From Candidatus Atribacteria bacterium (GTDB lineage: Bacteria > Atribacterota > JALVIU01), in NCBI GenBank assembly GCA_027028665.1, contig JALVIU010000307.1, positions 1-8,711 on the forward strand: DNA of 8,711 bases. The letters are read 5' to 3'. How positions within the stretch are numbered: position 1 is the stretch's first letter; every line of letters starts with the position of its first letter. The translations under genes were made by a program, and so were the position numbers. Under the pieces are notes generated by a model. That model was given only the letters and a program-made list of their open reading frames with translations. It searched no databases and was not told the origin of the DNA. Below, one piece after another: positions 108 to 8,161 of this stretch.

Positions 108-209
108 TTAATTATTTAATTTCTCTCCTTTTAATTGCTCTAAAAACTTTTCTTTTAACTTTTAAAATCTTTCCTCAAAATTAAAGTCATCATTTCCCTT
201 TTTGGGCAT
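108..209 (-). pseudogene. Possible broken remnant of a small or truncated gene
   Basis: Read leftward from an ATG at 207-209, one frame gives MPKKGNDDFNFEERF, then a TAA at 162-164, then KLKEKFLEQLKGEKLNN and a second TAA at 108-110. Both halves look protein-like, the second as a charged amphipathic helix, and they lie in the same frame separated by one stop. The first half recalls the openings of type I restriction HsdM proteins (MPKK..., then a FEE[KR] motif), which would fit the RhuM gene next to it. The match is short, the first 20 bases overlap the end of the AOR gene in another frame, and AT-rich DNA can produce lysine-rich reading by chance. This is a weak, speculative call. Confidence 0.22.
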
Positions 210-2088
210 TTTCCAGTGTCCATAATAAACCCAACTTCTCCAGTTTTTCTCTCTTAGGTACTCCTTCTTCGTCCCATCCCCTTGCCTCATAATATTCAGA
301 GAGCATGGTTTCATAATCTTTTATCTTTACCTCTTCCATATCTTTGTATTTTCCAAATTCTGGAACCTTCTTTATTCTTTCAGGAATCATGTCATCTTTT
401 TTCCTTATCCCTTCTCTAACATTAAACATACGTTGTAGATTTATTACCCTTTCCCCTATCTCTAAGAGTTCTTTGCCATTTATTTCCCATCCAAGTGAAG
501 ATATTATATCTGCCATATCATCTGGGGTGAGACCTCCATATAGGTAGAATTTACATATACCGATTATATCTGGTATCACTCCAAAGTCATGGAGAATCTT
601 TGCCTGATACCCTTTTCCTTTTTCTGAGAATCGATCTACCTTGTGGGGATCTGTTAAACCATAAGGGATAAGTCCCAAATCCATCTTATGTGTATCATAT
701 GCTACTGTTTCTAATGGGTGTATATGGTTCATACCGGTATTTCCCACTCCGTATCCCAATGCCAAACTTTTTCCTGCACGAGGATCATGGGCAGGTCCCT
801 CTAAGCCTTTTACATGTATAGCATATTCTTCTGTTTTATCTCCAAGCTTCAAAGAAGCAGCCCTTACCCCATCTGCCAAGAGATTTCCTATGCCTTCTCT
901 CTTTGCAATCTTATGGATAAGGGGTATTGCAGCATCCATATTACCCCATGTAAGCTCTAATCCTTCAAGGTCCTCTTTTGTTAGGATCCCATTTTCATAA
1001 CACTCCATAGCAAATGCGATAGTTGCACCAGTAGATATAGTATCAAGTCCATACTTATTACATAGATATGTTGCATGTACAGCAGCATCTGTATCTTCGT
1101 TGAATATAAAGGATGTAAATGCAGTAATAGATTCATATTCCGCCCCAGAATGTACAGGTGTTTTCCATTTTCTCTCTTTTACCTCTACTATCCTTTCACA
1201 AAAGAGGATACATCCTTTATAACATCCATTGGCCTTTACAAGGTTTTCTTCTTTGAAATGTTCATATATCTTATCAGCCTTTCCCCAGGAGTTGGATCTC
1301 CAATTTTTTGTAGGCCAGTCTCCTACCTCATCACAGGTTCCCATGCCTCCAACTGTTCCGTTTTCTCTGGTGGATATATTATCTGGATTTGAAAGGAGTT
1401 TCTGGGCATATTTCCTTATAGTTTGATAGAACTTCTTTTTGTCCTTTATGGGGATCTCTCCGCTCCCTTTTACAGCTATGGCATATAGATTTTTTGAGCC
1501 CAATACAGCACCTGCACCTGATCTCCCTGCAGCACGAGAGCCGTCCCCAAACATAACCGATGCGTAATACACAAGGTTTTCACCAGCAGGTCCTATATTT
1601 GCAATTTCAAACTCTTTCCCCAGCTTTTCCTTAAGCAGAGAGGTTTTTTCATAACTCGAGAGACCTATTAACTCATCTGCAGGTTCTATGTGAATCTCAT
1701 CATCTTCTATTACTATATATGTGGGTTTCTTTGCCCTTCCCTCTATGATTAATACATCATATCCTGCTTTTTTAAGGGCAAGGCCCCAATCACTTCCACT
1801 TCTTGATTCTGCCCATATACCTGTAAGGGGGGATTTAAAGCAAAGGTCTATGCTTCCTGAACCAGGGGCATTAGTCCCGGTAAGGATACCTGTAGTAAAT
1901 AGTATCTTGTTTTGAGGACTTAAGGGATTTGTATTTTTCCCCAGTTCTTCATATAGGGTCTTTGCACCAAAACCCACCCCTCCCAGATACATTTTTACAT
2001 CTGCTTCAGAAAGGGGTTCACTCTTGGCATAAGAGGTGGTAAGATTAATGCGGAGGATCTTCCCACTATATCCATATAGATTAGCCAT
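190..2088 (-). CDS. Aldehyde:ferredoxin oxidoreductase (AOR) family protein
   Basis: A 632-residue cytoplasmic enzyme, full length for the AOR family, whose members oxidise aldehydes or carry out related low-potential reactions. They use a tungsten (or molybdenum) bis-pterin and one [4Fe-4S] cluster, usually with ferredoxin as partner. The N-terminal domain is clear: YGYSGKILRINLT at 5-17, GGVGFGAKTLYEE at 36-48, then the SGS.D...SPLTG pterin region near 77-90 and GRSGAGAVLGSKNLYAIAVKG at 188-208. Cluster cysteines are visible as C289, C293, C297 and a distant C512 (GICKF). The first three are spaced C-x3-C-x3-C rather than the C-x2-C-x3-C of the Pyrococcus enzyme. The second pterin motif is near DPRAG at 435-439, followed by GYGVGNTGMNHIHPLE at 445-460. 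The ATG at 2086-2088 has an AGGAG site 8 nt upstream. No MoaD-like gene or ferredoxin partner is adjacent. The substrate cannot be read from sequence; BamB-like aromatic enzymes belong to the same family. Confidence 0.93.
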   Translation of the reverse strand: MANLYGYSGKILRINLTTSYAKSEPLSEADVKMYLGGVGFGAKTLYEELGKNTNPLSPQNKILFTTGILTGTNAPGSGSIDLCFKSPLTGIWAESRSGSDWGLALKKAGYDVLIIEGRAKKPTYIVIEDDEIHIEPADELIGLSSYEKTSLLKEKLGKEFEIANIGPAGENLVYYASVMFGDGSRAAGRSGAGAVLGSKNLYAIAVKGSGEIPIKDKKKFYQTIRKYAQKLLSNPDNISTRENGTVGGMGTCDEVGDWPTKNWRSNSWGKADKIYEHFKEENLVKANGCYKGCILFCERIVEVKERKWKTPVHSGAEYESITAFTSFIFNEDTDAAVHATYLCNKYGLDTISTGATIAFAMECYENGILTKEDLEGLELTWGNMDAAIPLIHKIAKREGIGNLLADGVRAASLKLGDKTEEYAIHVKGLEGPAHDPRAGKSLALGYGVGNTGMNHIHPLETVAYDTHKMDLGLIPYGLTDPHKVDRFSEKGKGYQAKILHDFGVIPDIIGICKFYLYGGLTPDDMADIISSLGWEINGKELLEIGERVINLQRMFNVREGIRKKDDMIPERIKKVPEFGKYKDMEEVKIKDYETMLSEYYEARGWDEEGVPKREKLEKLGLLWTLENAQKGK

Positions 2089-2116: not shown

Positions 2117-2145
2117 ATTATAATTTTTATCTTCAAAATTGTCAA
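2117..2145 (-). promoter_or_regulatory. Perfect-consensus sigma-70 promoter for the AOR gene
   Basis: On the minus strand, TTGACA (2140-2145) and TATAAT (2117-2122) are separated by exactly 17 bp, so both boxes match the consensus in all six positions. Transcription would begin near 2110, giving a leader of about 22 nt that contains the AGGAG site. A promoter this strong usually needs repression, which fits the palindrome lying over its -35 box. Confidence 0.85.
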
Positions 2146-2156
2146 ATTTCGAAGAT
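2129..2156. promoter_or_regulatory. 28-bp near-perfect palindrome, candidate operator
   Basis: The left arm ATCTTCAAAATT (2129-2140) and right arm AATTTCGAAGAT (2145-2156) are inverted repeats matching at 11 of 12 positions around a 4-bp centre, GTCA. The -35 box of the AOR promoter (2140-2145) sits at the centre and the left arm covers part of its spacer. A dimeric repressor bound here would block AOR transcription. The site lies about 30 bp upstream of the nearest good rightward -35 box, so it could also influence the rightward operon. The regulator is unknown; no classical HTH repressor gene is seen in the window. There is no adjoining T-run, so a terminator is unlikely. Confidence 0.65.
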
Positions 2157-2185
2157 AAGTTGACACTGCCCATTGAATGTATATC

Positions 2186-2215
2186 TTGACATTTTTCTTT
2201 TTTAGATGATATACT
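2186..2215 (+). promoter_or_regulatory. Rightward sigma-70 promoter for the Mut7-C/archease-XDH operon
   Basis: TTGACA (2186-2191) and TATACT (2210-2215) are 18 bp apart, with 6/6 and 5/6 consensus matches. The start point would be near 2222, which is downstream of the first possible ATG at 2206. A second TTGACA at 2160-2165 has a weaker TATCTT at 2182-2187 (16-bp spacer) and could make a slightly longer transcript that does include 2206. The two possible promoters overlap. Confidence 0.65.
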
Positions 2216-3114
2216 TTTATAAAACTTTTACGAAAGAGGTGTTTGCTACAGATACAAAGCCTAAATTTTTGGTTTTTGGTATTCTAAAGCTTGTAAATTA
2301 TCTTAGAACCCTTGGTTTTGATACTATTTATCTAAGAAAAGATTATCAGAAAGCAATCAGGATTGCAAAGGAGGAGGGTAGGATCCTTGTTTCTCAGATA
2401 AATAATCTCCCTAAGCTCCCCTGGATCTTATACCTTACAGAAAAGAAAAATGACCTTCGATTAAAAGAAATTTTTCAAAAACTCCATTTAACAGTAAATG
2501 AAGAGGATATTTATACAAGATGTGGTGCTTGTAATGCCCCATTGGAAAATCTTTCAGTAGAAGATGCAGAAAAAATTTTGCCTTTTGATATAAAAAAATG
2601 TGCTTACCTCTTTAAAAGATGCCCCAAATGTGGTAAAATTTATTGGAAGGGCGAACATTATTTGACACTGAAAAATAAATTGTTAAAATTAGGTATTATG
2701 GAAAGGGGTAAATATTCCCTGTTTGATCATACAGCAGACCTGGGTATAGAGGCAGAGGCCCCATCTTTAGAGGGAATATTTGAAACCCTTGGAACTGCTT
2801 TATTTTCTGAACTTATAGAAGGTGAAATAGAGGAAAAGGGTAAATATACTATTGATGTTACTTCCTCTTCATTAGAGGGACTTTTGGTACGATTTTTAAA
2901 TGAACTTTTATATAAATTTGAAGTAGAAGAATTACTATGTAAGAGCTTTTCTTGTATTTTATTAGATAAAAGGATTTTATGTAACTGTTTTGGAGGGAAG
3001 TTTAATCCGAGAAGACATATTCAAAAAAGAGAGATTAAGGCTGCAACTTATCATAATCTTTGTTTAAAGAAGAAACAAAATAAATGGGTTGCAAGAGTAA
3101 TTCTGGATATCTAA
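2206..3114 (+). CDS. Mut7-C (PIN-like, degenerate) – archease fusion protein
   Basis: This 302-residue protein joins two complete domains. Residues about 20-160 match the Mut7-C family: KFLVFGILKLVNYLRTLGFDT (20-40), IAKEEGRILVS (53-63) and a zinc ribbon with C106, C109, C139 and C142 (RCGAC, RCPKCGKIYW). Mut7-C is a PIN-like nuclease fold. Here the usual FLxD acidic residue reads FLVF and the usual TRD reads SQI, so nuclease activity is doubtful. Residues about 165-302 are a whole archease, the cofactor that activates RtcB RNA ligase: DHTADLG at 174-180, LLVRFLNELLY at 226-236, KAATYHNL at 278-285 and a terminal D301. Known archease metal-site positions appear intact. The start is uncertain: 2206 lacks a Shine-Dalgarno and overlaps a -10 box; GTG at 2239 is an alternative. 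Met165 (2698) could give archease alone, but its upstream AGG is weak. No rtcB gene is visible. The stop overlaps the ribosome site of the next gene, indicating an operon. Confidence 0.85.
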   Translation: MIYFYKTFTKEVFATDTKPKFLVFGILKLVNYLRTLGFDTIYLRKDYQKAIRIAKEEGRILVSQINNLPKLPWILYLTEKKNDLRLKEIFQKLHLTVNEEDIYTRCGACNAPLENLSVEDAEKILPFDIKKCAYLFKRCPKCGKIYWKGEHYLTLKNKLLKLGIMERGKYSLFDHTADLGIEAEAPSLEGIFETLGTALFSELIEGEIEEKGKYTIDVTSSSLEGLLVRFLNELLYKFEVEELLCKSFSCILLDKRILCNCFGGKFNPRRHIQKREIKAATYHNLCLKKKQNKWVARVILDI

Positions 3115-3123: not shown

Positions 3124-5454
3124 ATGGAATATAAGTTCATTGGGAAAGAATTTAAGAGGGTAGATGCCTTATCCAAGCTAACAGGACGGGCAAGATTTTT
3201 AGCAGATATTATTTTGCCCCATATGTATTATGGTATTTTTTTAAGAGCCAGCATTGCTCATGGCGAGATCCTGGATATAGAAACAGAAGATGCAAAGAAT
3301 GTGGAAGGGGTAAAGGCTATAGTTCTTGGGAGGGATTTTCCCCATAATTATGGACATCTTATCAAGGATAGACCAATATTTGCATTTGATAAGGTGAGAT
3401 ATTATGGAGAAGCAATTGGTGGTGTAATTGCAAAGACCGAAGAGGCAGCACGTGTGGCAGCAGATAAGGTAAAGGTATCTTATAAACCATTACCAATAAT
3501 AACACACCCAAAGGAGTCTTTGAATAATAAAGAGGTAATTATAAGAGAAGTAAGCCCAACACCTGATATGGTGTATAGGCCTGTTAAAGGTACAAATATC
3601 TTTCATTATGATGTAGTGAAAAGAGGAGATGTAGAAAAGGGGTTTGAAGAAGCAGATATTATAGTGGAAAGTGAATTTAATATAGCCCCTATAAATCATG
3701 TTCAAATTGAGCCTCATGGAGCTATTGCCCTATGGGATGAGGATGGTTCCCTTACTGTATGGTCCTCTACTCAGGCTCCTTTTACTGTGAGGTATTTCCT
3801 CTCAGATATATTTGAACTTCCACTCAATAAGGTAAGGGTGATAGCTTACTATGTAGGTGGAGGATTTGGAGGAAAGTCAGATGTAGGGATTGAGCCCATG
3901 GTTGCACTCCTGGCAAAGAGTGTACCAGGTCATCCTGTAAAGGTAATACTTTCCAGAGAAGAGGTATTTCATGGGAGTTTTCTGAGGGGTAATTTCTGGG
4001 GAAGAGTTAAAACAGGAGTCAAAAAGGATGGTAAGATTGTCTCAGAAAAGGTAGAATTTGCCATGGGTGGAGGTGGATCCGGAGAATTTGGAGGTACTGT
4101 AGTAGATGGTGCCTTCAAATCTGCAGTAGGTCCATATGAGATAGAAAATGTTCATGCTGTAGGTTATGGAGTTTATACAAATCTACCGCCAACAGGTGCC
4201 TTCAGGGGTTATGGTCACCCTGAGACCCACTGGATGATAGAAAGACAGAGGGATATAATTGCACGAAAGCTTGGAATTGATCCTGTGGTACTTAGAAAGA
4301 AAAATATTTTAAAGCCAGGAAGTATAAATATTATAGGACAGAAGATAGAAGAACACAATGGAAATTTGGAGAAGTGTTTAGACCTTGTAGTAGAAGAACT
4401 TGATTGGCCAAATAACATTGGACATATAGATAAGAAAAATAAAAAGGCATATGGAAAGGGTTTTGCACTCTTGCAAAAATCCCCTGTAATGCCTACAAAT
4501 GCAGCATCTTCTGCTATTTTGAAATTAAATGATGATGGAACAGTTAACCTCACAGTAGGGACCCAGGAGATAGGACAGGGGATAGATACAGCACTTACTC
4601 AGATTGCAGCAGAGGCTCTGGGTATTTCCCCTGAAAAGATAAAGCTTGTTCCTTACAGAGATACGGATCTCTATCCTTATGAATGGCAAACTGTTGCAAG
4701 TAGAGGCGTATGGTCTGTAGGAAATGCTATTATAATGGCAGCGGATGAGGTAAAACATAAGATGAGAAAGGTAGCAAAAGAGATATTTAGTGTAGATGAA
4801 GAAGATATAGTAGTAGAGGATGGGCTTGTATTTCCGCAGGGAGAGAAGGAAAAGGCCATCACCTATAAGGACCTTGCTATAGGATATACACTCCCTGAGG
4901 GAAGTGGAATAGGGGGACCGATAGTTGGAGCAGGCTACTTTATACCAGAAGGGCTTGTGTATCCTGATCCTGAAACAGGACAGGGAAATTCTGCTGCCGA
5001 GTGGACCTTTGGAGCCCAGGGAGTTGAGATAGAGGTAGATCTTATTACCGGAAAGGTAAAGATATTAAAGGCTGTTACAGCGATAGATGCAGGCACTATT
5101 ATAAATCCAGAAAATGCACGTGGACAGGTGGTAGGTGCAATGGCAATGGCTTTGAGTATAGCCCAGAGAGAGGCCATTGTGATATCTAAAGAGGGAAAGA
5201 TCAGGAATGATAGTCTTACAGATTACAAGATCTCTACCATAAGGGATGTGCCTTCTGAATATAAGGTATTTTTTGTAGAAACAGAGGAAGAGACTGGTCC
5301 ATTTGGAGCAAGATCCCTTGCAGAACATGGAATGGTAGCTATGGCACCTGCTCTTGCAAATGCACTTTATAACGCTTTAGGGGTAGAATTCTTTAAGTTG
5401 CCCATTACCTTTGAGGATATTGCTTTGGCGATAGATGAGAAAAAAATAGTTTAG
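3124..5454 (+). CDS. Xanthine-dehydrogenase-family molybdopterin-binding subunit
   Basis: A 776-residue large subunit of a molybdenum hydroxylase, close in length to E. coli XdhA. It would hold the molybdopterin cofactor and hydroxylate an aldehyde, purine or other heterocycle with oxygen from water, passing electrons to the FeS and FAD subunits. It has no signal peptide. Recognisable motifs are the N-terminal KLTGRARFLADI (18-29), STQAPF (215-220), GGGFGGK (245-251), AFRGYGHPE (359-367), VGTQEIGQG (478-486) and GPFGARSLAEHG (725-736). E734 corresponds to the catalytic Glu1261 of the bovine enzyme and Q217 to Gln767. By gap-free alignment between motifs, bovine purine-binding Glu802 is Ser252 here and Arg880 is Gly329, while Phe914 is Tyr363, still aromatic. 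Xanthine is therefore an unlikely substrate, though this relies on recalled bovine numbering. The AAGGAGG site before the ATG supports the start. Confidence 0.93.
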   Translation: MEYKFIGKEFKRVDALSKLTGRARFLADIILPHMYYGIFLRASIAHGEILDIETEDAKNVEGVKAIVLGRDFPHNYGHLIKDRPIFAFDKVRYYGEAIGGVIAKTEEAARVAADKVKVSYKPLPIITHPKESLNNKEVIIREVSPTPDMVYRPVKGTNIFHYDVVKRGDVEKGFEEADIIVESEFNIAPINHVQIEPHGAIALWDEDGSLTVWSSTQAPFTVRYFLSDIFELPLNKVRVIAYYVGGGFGGKSDVGIEPMVALLAKSVPGHPVKVILSREEVFHGSFLRGNFWGRVKTGVKKDGKIVSEKVEFAMGGGGSGEFGGTVVDGAFKSAVGPYEIENVHAVGYGVYTNLPPTGAFRGYGHPETHWMIERQRDIIARKLGIDPVVLRKKNILKPGSINIIGQKIEEHNGNLEKCLDLVVEELDWPNNIGHIDKKNKKAYGKGFALLQKSPVMPTNAASSAILKLNDDGTVNLTVGTQEIGQGIDTALTQIAAEALGISPEKIKLVPYRDTDLYPYEWQTVASRGVWSVGNAIIMAADEVKHKMRKVAKEIFSVDEEDIVVEDGLVFPQGEKEKAITYKDLAIGYTLPEGSGIGGPIVGAGYFIPEGLVYPDPETGQGNSAAEWTFGAQGVEIEVDLITGKVKILKAVTAIDAGTIINPENARGQVVGAMAMALSIAQREAIVISKEGKIRNDSLTDYKISTIRDVPSEYKVFFVETEEETGPFGARSLAEHGMVAMAPALANALYNALGVEFFKLPITFEDIALAIDEKKIV

Positions 5455-5463
5455 GGGGAAAAG

Positions 5464-6318
5464 ATGCTTATACCTTTCGAATATATAAAGTTTGATAGTA
5501 TAAAAGATGCATCTGTCTTTTTGAAAGAACATGGTGATGATGCTCATATTCTTGCAGGGGGTACAGATGTAATTGTAAAGATCCGGGCAAGAAAACTAAA
5601 ACCAAAATATCTTGTAGACATAAAGGGAATAGAAGGACTTAAAGGTATAGAAAAGGATAGAGATAAGATCGTGATAGGCGCACTTACAACAGCCAATGAA
5701 GTTGCAAAAAATACTCATATAAAAGAGTATTTTCCTGTCTTAAAAGATGGCGCATGGACCCTTGGGGACTATGAGATTCGAAATAGGGCAACAATTGGTG
5801 GAAATATATGTAACGGTTCCCCTAGTGCAGATACGGTAATTCCACTTCTGGTATATGATGCAAAAGTAATCATAGCCTCAGATGAAGGCGAGAGAGTAGA
5901 GGCACTGGATAAGTTTTTCAAAGGACCAGGAAAGGTGAATTTAGGGCCAGGTGAAATACTTAAAAATATAATATTAAATATCCCTGATTATCCTGTGAAA
6001 GGTAAATTTTTTAGAGTAAGTAGGGTAGAAGGAATGGACCTTGCCTCCCTTAATATGGCTATATTGGTTGCAAATCCGGATAGTATTTCAGATAGAAAGG
6101 TAAGGATATCTATCGGGGCTGTTGCCCCTGTTCCTCTTAGAGTTTATGAGCTTGAAGAATTTTTATCTGGAAAAGAGTTTACAAAAGAGATATTTGATAA
6201 GGCAAAGGAGATCTTACTTAATAATTTGAATCCAAGGGAAGGGAGCCTAAGGGCAACTCCTTATTATAAAAAGAGAATGGCAGTACATTACCTTTCATGG
6301 TTATTTGAAGAAATCTAA
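5464..6318 (+). CDS. Xanthine-dehydrogenase-family FAD-binding subunit
   Basis: A 284-residue medium subunit, close to E. coli XdhB and CoxM in size. It binds FAD and hands electrons from the FeS subunit to the final acceptor. The two FAD-binding loops of the family are present: ILAGGTDVIVKIR (29-41) and IRNRATIGGNICNGSPSADT (105-124). A C-terminal CO-dehydrogenase flavoprotein-like domain covers roughly 175-280 (VRISIGAVAPVPLRVYELEEF near 203-223). The extra [4Fe-4S] insertion that marks 4-hydroxybenzoyl-CoA reductase beta subunits is absent: there is no cysteine cluster and the length is too short. The gene begins 9 nt after the large-subunit stop, whose TAG is part of the ribosome site TAGGGGGAAAAG. 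Confidence 0.93.
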   Translation: MLIPFEYIKFDSIKDASVFLKEHGDDAHILAGGTDVIVKIRARKLKPKYLVDIKGIEGLKGIEKDRDKIVIGALTTANEVAKNTHIKEYFPVLKDGAWTLGDYEIRNRATIGGNICNGSPSADTVIPLLVYDAKVIIASDEGERVEALDKFFKGPGKVNLGPGEILKNIILNIPDYPVKGKFFRVSRVEGMDLASLNMAILVANPDSISDRKVRISIGAVAPVPLRVYELEEFLSGKEFTKEIFDKAKEILLNNLNPREGSLRATPYYKKRMAVHYLSWLFEEI

Positions 6319-6329
6319 AGGGGTGAAAT

Positions 6330-6800
6330 ATGAAAAAGATAATAAAACTAAGAGTAAACGGGGAAGACTATGAAATTTTGGTAGAGCCTTATTGGACTTT
6401 ACTTAAGGTCTTAAGGGATGTCCTAGGGTTTACAGGCCCCAAAGAGGGTTGTGGTATTGGGGAATGCGGGGCATGTACTGTATATATAGATGACAAGCCT
6501 GTAAAATCCTGTCTTGTTTTAGGGGTAGAAGTAAATGGTGCAAATATTACCACTATTGAAGGCCTATCACAGAATAAAAAAATATCAGGGATACAAAAGG
6601 CCTTCATAGACGAAGGTGCTGTACAGTGTGGATTTTGTACACCAGGTATGGTAATGGCCATAAATGCACTTTATACTAATGTCTCTGATCCGGGAGAAGA
6701 TGATATAAAAGAGGCTTTAAAAGGACACTTATGTAGATGTACAGGATATGAAACTATTGTAAAAGCTGCAAAGAGGGCAAAAGAATACTATAAAAGATGA
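6330..6800 (+). CDS. Xanthine-dehydrogenase-family [2Fe-2S] subunit
   Basis: A 156-residue small subunit of the same hydroxylase, matching E. coli XdhC and CoxS in length. It carries two [2Fe-2S] clusters that link the molybdenum site with FAD. All eight ligands are present: C41, C46, C49 and C61 in the plant-ferredoxin-like N-terminal domain (GCGIGECGACTVYID), and C100, C103, C135 and C137 in the helical C-terminal domain (QCGFCTPGM and HLCRCTGYE). No Tat signal is seen, so the complex should be cytoplasmic. The ribosome site AAAGGGGTGA lies just before the ATG, 11 nt after the FAD-subunit stop. Its TGA overlaps the ATG of the next gene (ATGA, 6797-6800), so the downstream protein is translationally coupled to the hydroxylase. 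Confidence 0.95.
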   Translation: MKKIIKLRVNGEDYEILVEPYWTLLKVLRDVLGFTGPKEGCGIGECGACTVYIDDKPVKSCLVLGVEVNGANITTIEGLSQNKKISGIQKAFIDEGAVQCGFCTPGMVMAINALYTNVSDPGEDDIKEALKGHLCRCTGYETIVKAAKRAKEYYKR

Positions 6801-8161
6801 CAAAAAAGAGTTCAATAGAGATACTTGTAAATTTTAGCCAGTTAAAAAATGAAGAAGAGGAGCTTTTCTCTCAAGGAGAGAAGCTCCTTAAATCCTTAAT
6901 AAAAGAGTCTAAAGCCTTTTTTCCTTCAAATCTGTCAAAAACTTTTAAAGTAAATATGACTAATATAGATGAGTCTCCTGAAAAGCTTGACCTATCTAAA
7001 TATAAGGGTTTCATATTGGATCCTTTAACTCTCTCCCTTGTGAAGAATAAAATAAGTAATGTAGAGAATCTAAATGTGTTACTTTTTAATCATTCTAATG
7101 CGAATATGGTAGATTTGCTCGTTCCTATACATGGAATATTTGGAATAGATGTAGGTACTATTTTGGAAGAGAAGTTTAGCTTTTTTGAAACTTTTATGCG
7201 ATTTGTATTTTTTCTTCTTAAGGCCCAGGGTGTTTATAAAGAAGAAGACTTTACTTATACTATCTACCCGGATAAGACAAATATCTATCTTAAAACAAAT
7301 GTTGGGTCGGGGTTTTTAATTGAACTAAAGAATATATTCAGGAATATAAAAAGGAATGTCGCCCTTTTGGATAAGGTAAGAGAAAATTACAAACTGTATA
7401 CATATAAACTTCGAGAAAAAAATGTGATAAAGGATAAAAAGAGAAGACAGGAGGAAATTTTAAAAAGCCTATTAGAGTATAGTGTTGTACAAGATGTAAG
7501 TATCTTTTCTTTGCCCTCTGTATTATTTGTGTATAAATCTTCCATTGAAAGGGATATTTTTAGAAAGTGGTTTTTTAATGAATTCCTTTCCAATATAGAT
7601 TTACATCTTCCGTATGTTAATTTTTCTGCCTTTTCTTCAGAGGATAGTAGAGATTTATTTGGTTTTATACCGGTAAATTTAGAAGAGAATGATATAAAAT
7701 GGGGTATGTTATTTGAAAATCAAGGCAGTATAGTAATATTAGATGAACTCCCCGAGACAGAAGAGTTCTTTGAAAGACTCTCTTTTTATGTAAAGACCAA
7801 AAAGCTTGTTCCATATGGAAGAAGGGTAGAGGTACCTGCGCCTTTCGTTCTTATTTCTTTTATAGATAGAAATAGATTTATAAAATACAGGAAATACCTA
7901 TCCTTCCCCTATATTTGGGACTTACCTCACCCTTTACCCAATGATAATATCTTGACATTTGTATCCAATACAATGTTTATGTATAATAGGGAGTATCCTT
8001 TAAAAATTACCTATGAGGCCCTCTCCTTTTTAAAGATGATGCTAAATTTACATGGGGAAGAGGTTGTGGTTTCCATATTGGGTACGTTGTTTTTCCATTT
8101 GGACCCATCTTTTATCTTGACTAAAAGAGGATTACAAGATTTTTTCATTCATTTTATATGA
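6797..8161 (+). CDS. Unrecognised protein with a degenerate sigma-54-activator-like AAA+ domain
   Basis: A 454-residue protein. Residues 1-230 match no family I recognise; about 190-225 is strongly charged and helical, possibly coiled-coil. Residues about 238-450 align by eye to the AAA+ domain of sigma-54 activators such as NtrC. LPSVLFV (239-245) matches the strand before Walker A, DLFG (286-289) the conserved ELFG, LFENQGSIVILDELPE (305-320) the 'FE.A.GGTLFLDEI' Walker B with D316 and E317, then LVPYGRRVEVPAPFVLISF (337-355) and YRKYL (364-368) the FREDL arginine-finger segment. Key features are lost: Walker A reads YKSSIERD (246-253) without the glycines or lysine, GAFTGA is replaced near 291-297, the second arginine finger is missing, and no Fis-type HTH follows. 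ATP hydrolysis and sigma-54 activation look impossible. A 4-nt overlap with the FeS subunit ties it to the hydroxylase; regulator, scaffold or assembly factor are all possible. The remote homology is inferred. Confidence 0.6.
   Translation: MTKKSSIEILVNFSQLKNEEEELFSQGEKLLKSLIKESKAFFPSNLSKTFKVNMTNIDESPEKLDLSKYKGFILDPLTLSLVKNKISNVENLNVLLFNHSNANMVDLLVPIHGIFGIDVGTILEEKFSFFETFMRFVFFLLKAQGVYKEEDFTYTIYPDKTNIYLKTNVGSGFLIELKNIFRNIKRNVALLDKVRENYKLYTYKLREKNVIKDKKRRQEEILKSLLEYSVVQDVSIFSLPSVLFVYKSSIERDIFRKWFFNEFLSNIDLHLPYVNFSAFSSEDSRDLFGFIPVNLEENDIKWGMLFENQGSIVILDELPETEEFFERLSFYVKTKKLVPYGRRVEVPAPFVLISFIDRNRFIKYRKYLSFPYIWDLPHPLPNDNILTFVSNTMFMYNREYPLKITYEALSFLKMMLNLHGEEVVVSILGTLFFHLDPSFILTKRGLQDFFIHFI
6858..6888 (+). 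other. Long RNA stem-loop inside the start of the 454-residue gene
   Basis: AGGAGCTTTTCTCT (6858-6871) pairs with GGAGAGAAGCTCCT (6875-6888) in a 14-bp stem with two G-U pairs (6866/6880 and 6871/6875) and a CAA loop. It begins about 60 nt after the ATG of the downstream gene and just after the last XDH cistron. No T-run follows, so it is not an ordinary intrinsic terminator. It could slow ribosomes, guide RNA processing or protect the 3' end of the XDH message. Confidence 0.55.

What the first reader, a model, noticed from the sequence alone, without database searches (positions are those of the whole stretch)
2206..3114. Fusion of a Mut7-C PIN-like/zinc-ribbon domain to a full-length archease
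Residues about 20-160 form a whole Mut7-C domain and about 165-302 a whole archease, in one frame with no stop between. Archease is the activator of the RNA ligase RtcB, and Mut7-C is a nuclease-like RNA-associated fold. A single protein combining them would put RNA recognition or cutting next to the ligase activator, suggesting an RNA-repair or tRNA-processing adaptor. I do not know of this architecture as a described one, but cannot search. No rtcB gene is in the window.
Basis: partly seen in the sequence, partly recalled or inferred. Interest (0 to 1): 0.75.

Follow-up and report, generated by a model that had tools for sequence, protein, structure and literature searches.

The report
Mut7-C fused to RNA-ligase activator archease
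One gene in an uncultured bacterium joins an RNA-binding-type protein module that has lost its presumed cutting residues to archease, the helper that switches on the RNA-repair ligase RtcB; the join is real in the sequence but so far known from this single genome, so what the join does is unproven.

Summary
Window 2206-3114 (+) is one open frame of 302 aa: Mut7-C (Pfam 8e-27, residues 26-157) followed directly by a complete archease (5e-36, residues 170-302). The last Mut7-C codon is followed at once by archease's usual start Met (M165), in frame, with no linker.

The archease half keeps every residue shown elsewhere to be needed for RtcB activation, including the free C-terminal Asp-Ile. It is the only archease found in the genome. 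The genome has an rtcB start (on another contig, interrupted by an intein). In all 40 other archease-bearing genomes of the phylum archease is a separate gene just upstream of rtcB; only here is it moved and fused.

The Mut7-C half belongs to a paralogue shared with one related family, where it stands alone. That paralogue has lost both conserved acidic residues of the presumed nuclease site but keeps its Cys4 zinc site, so binding, not cutting, is likely. No other Mut7-C-archease fusion appeared in about 340 archease-bearing genomes. Archaea do fuse archease to unrelated N-terminal partners (adenylate kinase, HAD hydrolase, cytochrome b5), so a functional link is plausible, not shown. Verdict: real, apparently undescribed architecture in one genome; moderate interest.

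The parts
2206..3114 (+). Fused ORF, Mut7-C + archease, 302 aa (P0001)
   Evidence: single open frame, two Pfam domains well over cut-off
2206..2697 (+). Mut7-C half (residues 1-164); Pfam match 26-157; Cys4 zinc site C106, C109, C139, C142; W147-x-G149-x-H151; presumed acidic site lost (F24, I65)
   Evidence: AlphaFold2 model with pLDDT mostly above 90 over residues 20-160; best structural match MUT-7 C-terminal domain 8q66, Z 9.3, 137 residues; profile match to 8q66 E 3e-5
2698..3111 (+). Archease half (residues 165-302) with H175, D178, K278, D301, I302 (C-terminus)
   Evidence: residue roles from PMC3973293 and PMC10944509
2698..2700 (+). ATG (M165) that lines up with the start of stand-alone archeases; possible internal start, weak ribosome-binding match (-3.8 kcal/mol)
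2662..2689 (+). Promoter-like match TTGACA-16-TAAAAT inside the Mut7-C part, ending 8 nt before ATG 2698 (consensus match only; most of it codes for conserved residues)
2186..2215 (+). Promoter-like match TTGACA-18-TATACT, overlapping ATG 2206 (consensus match only)
2127..2158 (.). Near-perfect 14-bp inverted repeat between the divergent AOR-type gene and the fusion gene; possible operator
3124..6800 (+). Three molybdenum hydroxylase (xanthine dehydrogenase type) subunit genes starting 9 bp after the fusion gene; likely co-transcribed, no evident RNA link
190..2088 (-). Divergent aldehyde:ferredoxin oxidoreductase gene

Best explanation
This is a lineage-specific gene fusion that makes a two-domain RtcB activator. 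The C-terminal half is a working archease: it docks its metal-binding tip, which includes its own C-terminal carboxylate, into RtcB and promotes loading of the ligase with GMP. The N-terminal half is a Mut7-C module without its presumed nuclease residues. It probably holds RNA, so that RNA and activator reach RtcB together. Only about ten residues separate the end of Mut7-C from the archease tip, so the RNA-holding arm would sit at the mouth of the ligase active site. Because archease and RNA exclude each other there, it could hand RNA over as archease leaves. Shown: the fusion in the DNA, both folds or families, the retained archease residues, the lost Mut7-C acids, the presence of an rtcB start. 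Inferred: RtcB activation by this protein, RNA binding, and the handover.
For: Both domains far over cut-off in one frame. All archease residues known to be needed are kept: H175, D178, K278, D301, I302. Only archease found in the genome, and an rtcB start is present. Mut7-C half modelled with high confidence and closest to MUT-7 C-terminal domain 8q66, a domain reported to contribute to RNA binding (PMC11347159); it is basic, pI 9.5, net +12. The acidic pair D24/D65 of canonical relatives is lost. Archease and RNA compete for the RtcB site (PMC10944509).
Against: Seen in one genome only, so there is no conservation of the fusion to argue for function. Archease is fused to plainly unrelated partners elsewhere, so partner identity may mean little. 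The fused gene sits with molybdenum hydroxylase genes, away from rtcB. Stand-alone Mut7-C relatives in family f5 lie between an aminotransferase and a uvrD-type gene, not near rtcB. No RNA binding was tested. A weak internal start could release a free archease.
Confidence: 0.43

Rival explanations
1. Incidental fusion. The protein is made as one chain and its archease half activates RtcB, but the Mut7-C half does its own separate job; the join arose when archease moved next to a Mut7-C gene and a stop codon was lost. Archease tolerates N-terminal partners because only its C-terminus must be free.
For: Real archease fusions with unrelated partners in Thermoplasmatota: adenylate kinase-archease, HAD hydrolase-archease, cytochrome b5-archease, always with archease last. 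C-terminal carboxylate is a metal ligand (PMC3973293, PMC10944509). Mut7-C ends and archease starts at adjacent codons, with no evolved linker.
Against: Both partners belong to RNA-linked families, which is a better match than adenylate kinase or cytochrome b5. The mere absence of a linker is neutral.
Confidence: 0.28
2. Mostly separate products. ATG 2698 is still used as archease's own start (internal ribosome entry or internal promoter), so the cell makes free archease, and the read-through fusion is minor.
For: M165 lines up with the start of stand-alone archeases. Weak ribosome-binding match of -3.8 kcal/mol at 2698, against -0.1 for ATG 2206 and -1.7 for GTG 2239. Promoter-like match 2662-2689 just upstream. 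Relatives have separate genes.
Against: -3.8 is ordinary: 10 of 26 internal in-frame ATGs score -4 or better, median -2.7. The promoter-like stretch lies over codons for conserved residues and is a consensus match only. The lack of any stop means ribosomes entering upstream must make the fusion.
Confidence: 0.18
3. One reading: an active RNA-cutting domain joined to the ligase activator, a cut-and-reseal adaptor.
For: Mut7-C is named an RNase family in Pfam, and a 2006 analysis reported the same pattern of conserved catalytic residues as PIN RNases (PMC1779556).
Against: Conserved acids D24 (14 of 15 canonical relatives) and D65 (12 of 15) are F and I here, and Y and V or L in all nine nearest relatives. 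A 2024 structural study found MUT7-C only distantly related to PIN and assigned RNA binding, not cutting (PMC11347159).
Confidence: 0.06
4. Artefact of assembly or binning: the contig joins two genes that are separate in the living cell, or the contig belongs to another organism.
For: Fragmented metagenome-assembled genome (413 contigs, about 90% complete; the window is a whole contig of 8711 bp) with no close relative held. Fusion seen once.
Against: The Mut7-C half groups with same-phylum family f5 at 100/99 support, which supports the binning. Similarity to relatives runs to the last Mut7-C codon and resumes from M165 in the same frame, so a single-base indel cannot create the join; an exact loss of a stop codon would be needed. 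No second archease and no archease next to rtcB were found.
Confidence: 0.05

Closest known systems
Archease (Pfam PF01951; Pyrococcus horikoshii and human archease, activators of RtcB)
   Same: Full-length domain, 136 of 136 profile positions; all five residues or ends shown to be needed for activation are present; C-terminus free
   Different: Carries a 164-residue N-terminal Mut7-C domain; not next to rtcB, unlike 40 of 40 other archease genes of its phylum; long branch in the archease tree
Mut7-C (Pfam PF01927), stand-alone prokaryotic form and the C-terminal domain of animal MUT-7/EXD3
   Same: Same fold by model (8q66 best, Z 9.3) and sequence; Cys4 zinc site and W-x-G-x-H kept
   Different: Lacks both conserved acidic residues; belongs to a divergent paralogue shared with family f5; joined to archease rather than to a DEDDy exonuclease (animals) or a ubiquitin-like domain (bacteria)
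Archease fusions in Thermoplasmatota (adenylate kinase-, HAD hydrolase- and cytochrome b5-archease)
   Same: Archease as the C-terminal domain behind an unrelated N-terminal partner
   Different: Partner there has no RNA link; different lineage
Archease-rtcB operon ('tRNA splicing operon', PMC3973293)
   Same: Same activator; this genome also has an rtcB start
   Different: Archease is unlinked from rtcB here and sits at the head of a molybdenum hydroxylase gene cluster

Membership tests
Archease (PF01951) | Whole-domain profile match over the curated cut-off | tested here: met
   124.5 bits against cut-off 25, profile 1-136 of 136; PDB archease 4n2p at E 4e-19
Archease (PF01951) | Metal-binding Asp pair and free C-terminal residue, plus His and Lys needed for RtcB activation (P. 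horikoshii D12, D141, I142, H9, K117) | tested here: met
   D178, D301, I302, H175, K278 (roles from PMC3973293, and PMC10944509)
Archease (PF01951) | Stimulates GMP loading of RtcB | not testable with these tools
   Needs purified protein
Archease (PF01951) | A cognate RtcB in the genome | tested here: met
   rtcB 5' end with intein on C289 and a second RtcB-like fragment on C196; the full canonical gene is cut by a contig end
Mut7-C (PF01927) | Profile match over cut-off and Cys4 zinc site | tested here: met
   94.5 bits against cut-off 23.3; C106, C109, C139, C142 invariant
Mut7-C (PF01927) | Fold of MUT7-C | tested here: met
   AlphaFold2 model with pLDDT mostly above 90; 8q66_A Z 9.3, rmsd 2.9, 137 residues, best of the list; profile hit to 8q66 E 3e-5
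Catalytic Mut7-C/PIN-like RNase | Conserved acidic residues (positions of D24 and D65 in canonical members) | tested here: not met
   F24 and I65 here; Y and V/L in nine f5 relatives; D in 14 of 15 and 12 of 15 canonical rows
MUT7-C RNA-binding module | Binds RNA | not testable with these tools
   Only basic charge (pI 9.5) and literature on animal proteins (PMC11347159)
Archease-rtcB operon | archease directly next to rtcB | tested here: not met
   40 of 40 other archease genomes of the phylum linked, this one not; gene upstream of rtcB here is not archease

The most novel reading that the evidence does not exclude
A dedicated RtcB activator with its own RNA-holding arm: a Mut7-C domain without nuclease residues tethered to archease delivers RNA ends to the ligase at the moment of its activation, a built-in substrate handover that is normally left to separate proteins.
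Probability: 0.25. Interest if true: 0.6.

Novelty: new variant of a known kind. Interest (0 to 1): 0.38.

Why it matters
Archease and prokaryotic Mut7-C are both widespread; archease acts on RtcB, while the job of bacterial and archaeal Mut7-C is stated to be unknown (PMC11347159). A natural fusion is a rare hint that some Mut7-C proteins work in RtcB-type RNA repair, and it makes that testable: add Mut7-C to RtcB-archease assays. The survey also shows a simple rule that fits the known chemistry: in the fusions seen here archease is the last domain, as its C-terminal carboxylate is a metal ligand. The hint is weakened because archease also fuses to unrelated partners and this fusion is known from one genome.

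Tried and rejected
Frameshift or sequencing-error origin of the join: rejected as likely, since the frame is right on both sides up to the adjacent codons. Active nuclease: rejected on lost acids. Conservation of the fusion in relatives: looked for and not found; the genome has no held relative closer than phylum level. Other fusions: of about 340 archease-bearing genomes in seven sets, all but one of the open frames of 240 aa or more were fetched and scanned with both HMMs and held no Mut7-C; the one not fetched (G151) has the same frame length as two scanned ones. Several of those long frames are only open non-coding stretches upstream of the real start. Viral contigs and plasmids: nothing with both domains. 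The phages collection was not searched. A joint alignment of single-domain relatives for one model of the whole protein failed, because archease rows aligned to the wrong half; so the archease half of the model is unreliable (pLDDT mostly 32-63) and the domain-domain geometry was not predicted. A separate archease model was queued but had not finished. Foldseek alone gave no significant match; the second look did. Vertical origin of the archease half could not be settled: long branch, no starred placement. Papers naming both archease and Mut7-C: none in the library held. No tRNA or Rfam family in the window.

Full report
What is there. The window is a whole 8711-bp contig (G000:C307) of a 413-contig, roughly 90% complete metagenome-assembled genome with no held relative closer than phylum level. 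Positions 2206-3114 on the + strand are one open frame of 302 codons. Pfam places Mut7-C at residues 26-157 and a complete archease at 170-302, both far over their cut-offs; phmmer finds solved archeases from residue 153 or 169 onward.

The join. The last residues of the Mut7-C half (TLKNKLLKLGI) match stand-alone relatives (TLKEKLKKLGI) to the end of the domain, and the next codon is ATG, the codon that lines up with the start of stand-alone archeases. There is no linker and no stop. Since similarity is in frame on both sides up to neighbouring codons, one missing or extra base cannot have made the join; it needs exact loss of the stop codon. That makes a sequencing artefact unlikely, though one assembly is all there is.

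The archease half. Residues shown by mutation in Pyrococcus horikoshii archease to be needed for RtcB activation (D12, D141, the last residue I142, H9, K117; PMC3973293), and the human metal and phosphate ligands (D51, D178, the carboxylate of I179, K156; PMC10944509), all have counterparts here: D178, D301, I302, H175, K278. It is the only archease found in the genome. An rtcB gene begins on contig C289, carries an intein after GGVGYDIN and is cut by the contig end; a second, short RtcB-like fragment is on C196.

Gene order. In all 40 other archease-bearing genomes of the phylum, archease is a stand-alone gene with rtcB directly downstream on the same strand (165-543 bp between the domain matches). 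In this genome the gene upstream of rtcB is not archease. So archease left its usual place and was joined to Mut7-C at the head of a molybdenum hydroxylase gene cluster, 9 bp before the first subunit gene.

The Mut7-C half. It groups with a set of Mut7-C proteins from family f5 of the same phylum (support 100/99), apart from the canonical Mut7-C, of which this genome has its own copy on C139 that groups with the f5 canonical copy. The f5 relatives are 150-172 aa and stand alone, nearly always between an aspartate aminotransferase and a uvrD-type helicase gene; in this genome the best aminotransferase match has other neighbours. The special set shares loss of both conserved acids (positions 24 and 65: D in 14 and 12 of 15 canonical rows; Y and V/L in nine f5 rows; F and I here), while all four zinc cysteines and the W-G-H residues are invariant. 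The model of this half is confident (pLDDT mostly above 90, residues 20-160) and its best structural match is the C. elegans MUT-7 C-terminal domain, Z 9.3 over 137 residues, which a profile search also finds (E 3e-5). A 2024 study assigns RNA binding, not cutting, to MUT7-C and says its bacterial role is unknown (PMC11347159); a 2006 analysis had reported shared PIN catalytic residues (PMC1779556). The half is basic (pI 9.5). Cutting is therefore unlikely, RNA binding likely but untested.

Is it unique? No other Mut7-C-archease fusion was found among about 340 archease-bearing genomes in this phylum and others, nor in plasmids or viral contigs, and no paper in the held library names both archease and Mut7-C. 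But archease has other N-terminal partners: adenylate kinase, a HAD hydrolase and a cytochrome b5 domain in Thermoplasmatota. In all of them archease is last, as expected if its C-terminal carboxylate must stay free. This makes the fusion more believable and at the same time weakens partner identity as evidence of function.

How it probably works. The archease half docks into RtcB and helps load GMP; its tip starts about ten residues after Mut7-C ends, so the Mut7-C arm would lie close to the ligase's active-site mouth, where archease and RNA exclude each other (PMC10944509). An RNA-holding arm there could hand over RNA when archease leaves. The steps shown are the fusion, the domain identities, the kept and lost residues and the gene order. 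RtcB activation by this protein, RNA binding and handover are inferred.

Expression caveats. ATG 2206 has no ribosome-binding sequence, and the next in-frame start, GTG 2239, is weak; the internal ATG 2698 is weak but not worse than typical internal ATGs. A promoter-like match precedes 2698. So a separate archease product cannot be excluded.

Verdict. The finding is real, and the architecture appears undescribed in what could be searched; it is a singleton. It is a new variant of a known kind, of moderate interest, with a testable hint that some bacterial Mut7-C proteins belong to RtcB RNA repair.

Noticed in passing
L083:2-1057 (G000 contig C289), also G013, G019, G023, G045 of family f5: rtcB genes interrupted by an intein starting at GGVGYDIN|C, the place of the metal-binding cysteine; single frames of about 1000 aa in f5 members.
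   Followed up: partly
L098, L088, L091 (Thermoplasmatota): Archease fused behind a cytochrome b5-like domain, adenylate kinase and a HAD hydrolase respectively; archease is always the C-terminal domain.
   Followed up: partly
L014-L024 (family f5): A divergent Mut7-C paralogue without its acidic site, in most members between an aspartate aminotransferase and a uvrD-type helicase gene.
   Followed up: partly
window 6797-8161 (+): 454-aa ORF after the molybdenum hydroxylase genes with no Pfam match; the stretch GMLFENQGSIVILDELPE looks like a degenerate sigma-54 activator-type ATPase (by eye only).
   Followed up: no
window 2127-2158: 14-bp inverted repeat (93%) between divergent promoters of the AOR-type gene and the fusion gene; the minus-strand promoter-like match is a perfect TTGACA-17-TATAAT.
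   Followed up: partly
L084:1-561 (G000 contig C196): Second, short RtcB-like gene fragment, divergent from the canonical RtcB, next to gatC/gatA genes.
   Followed up: no
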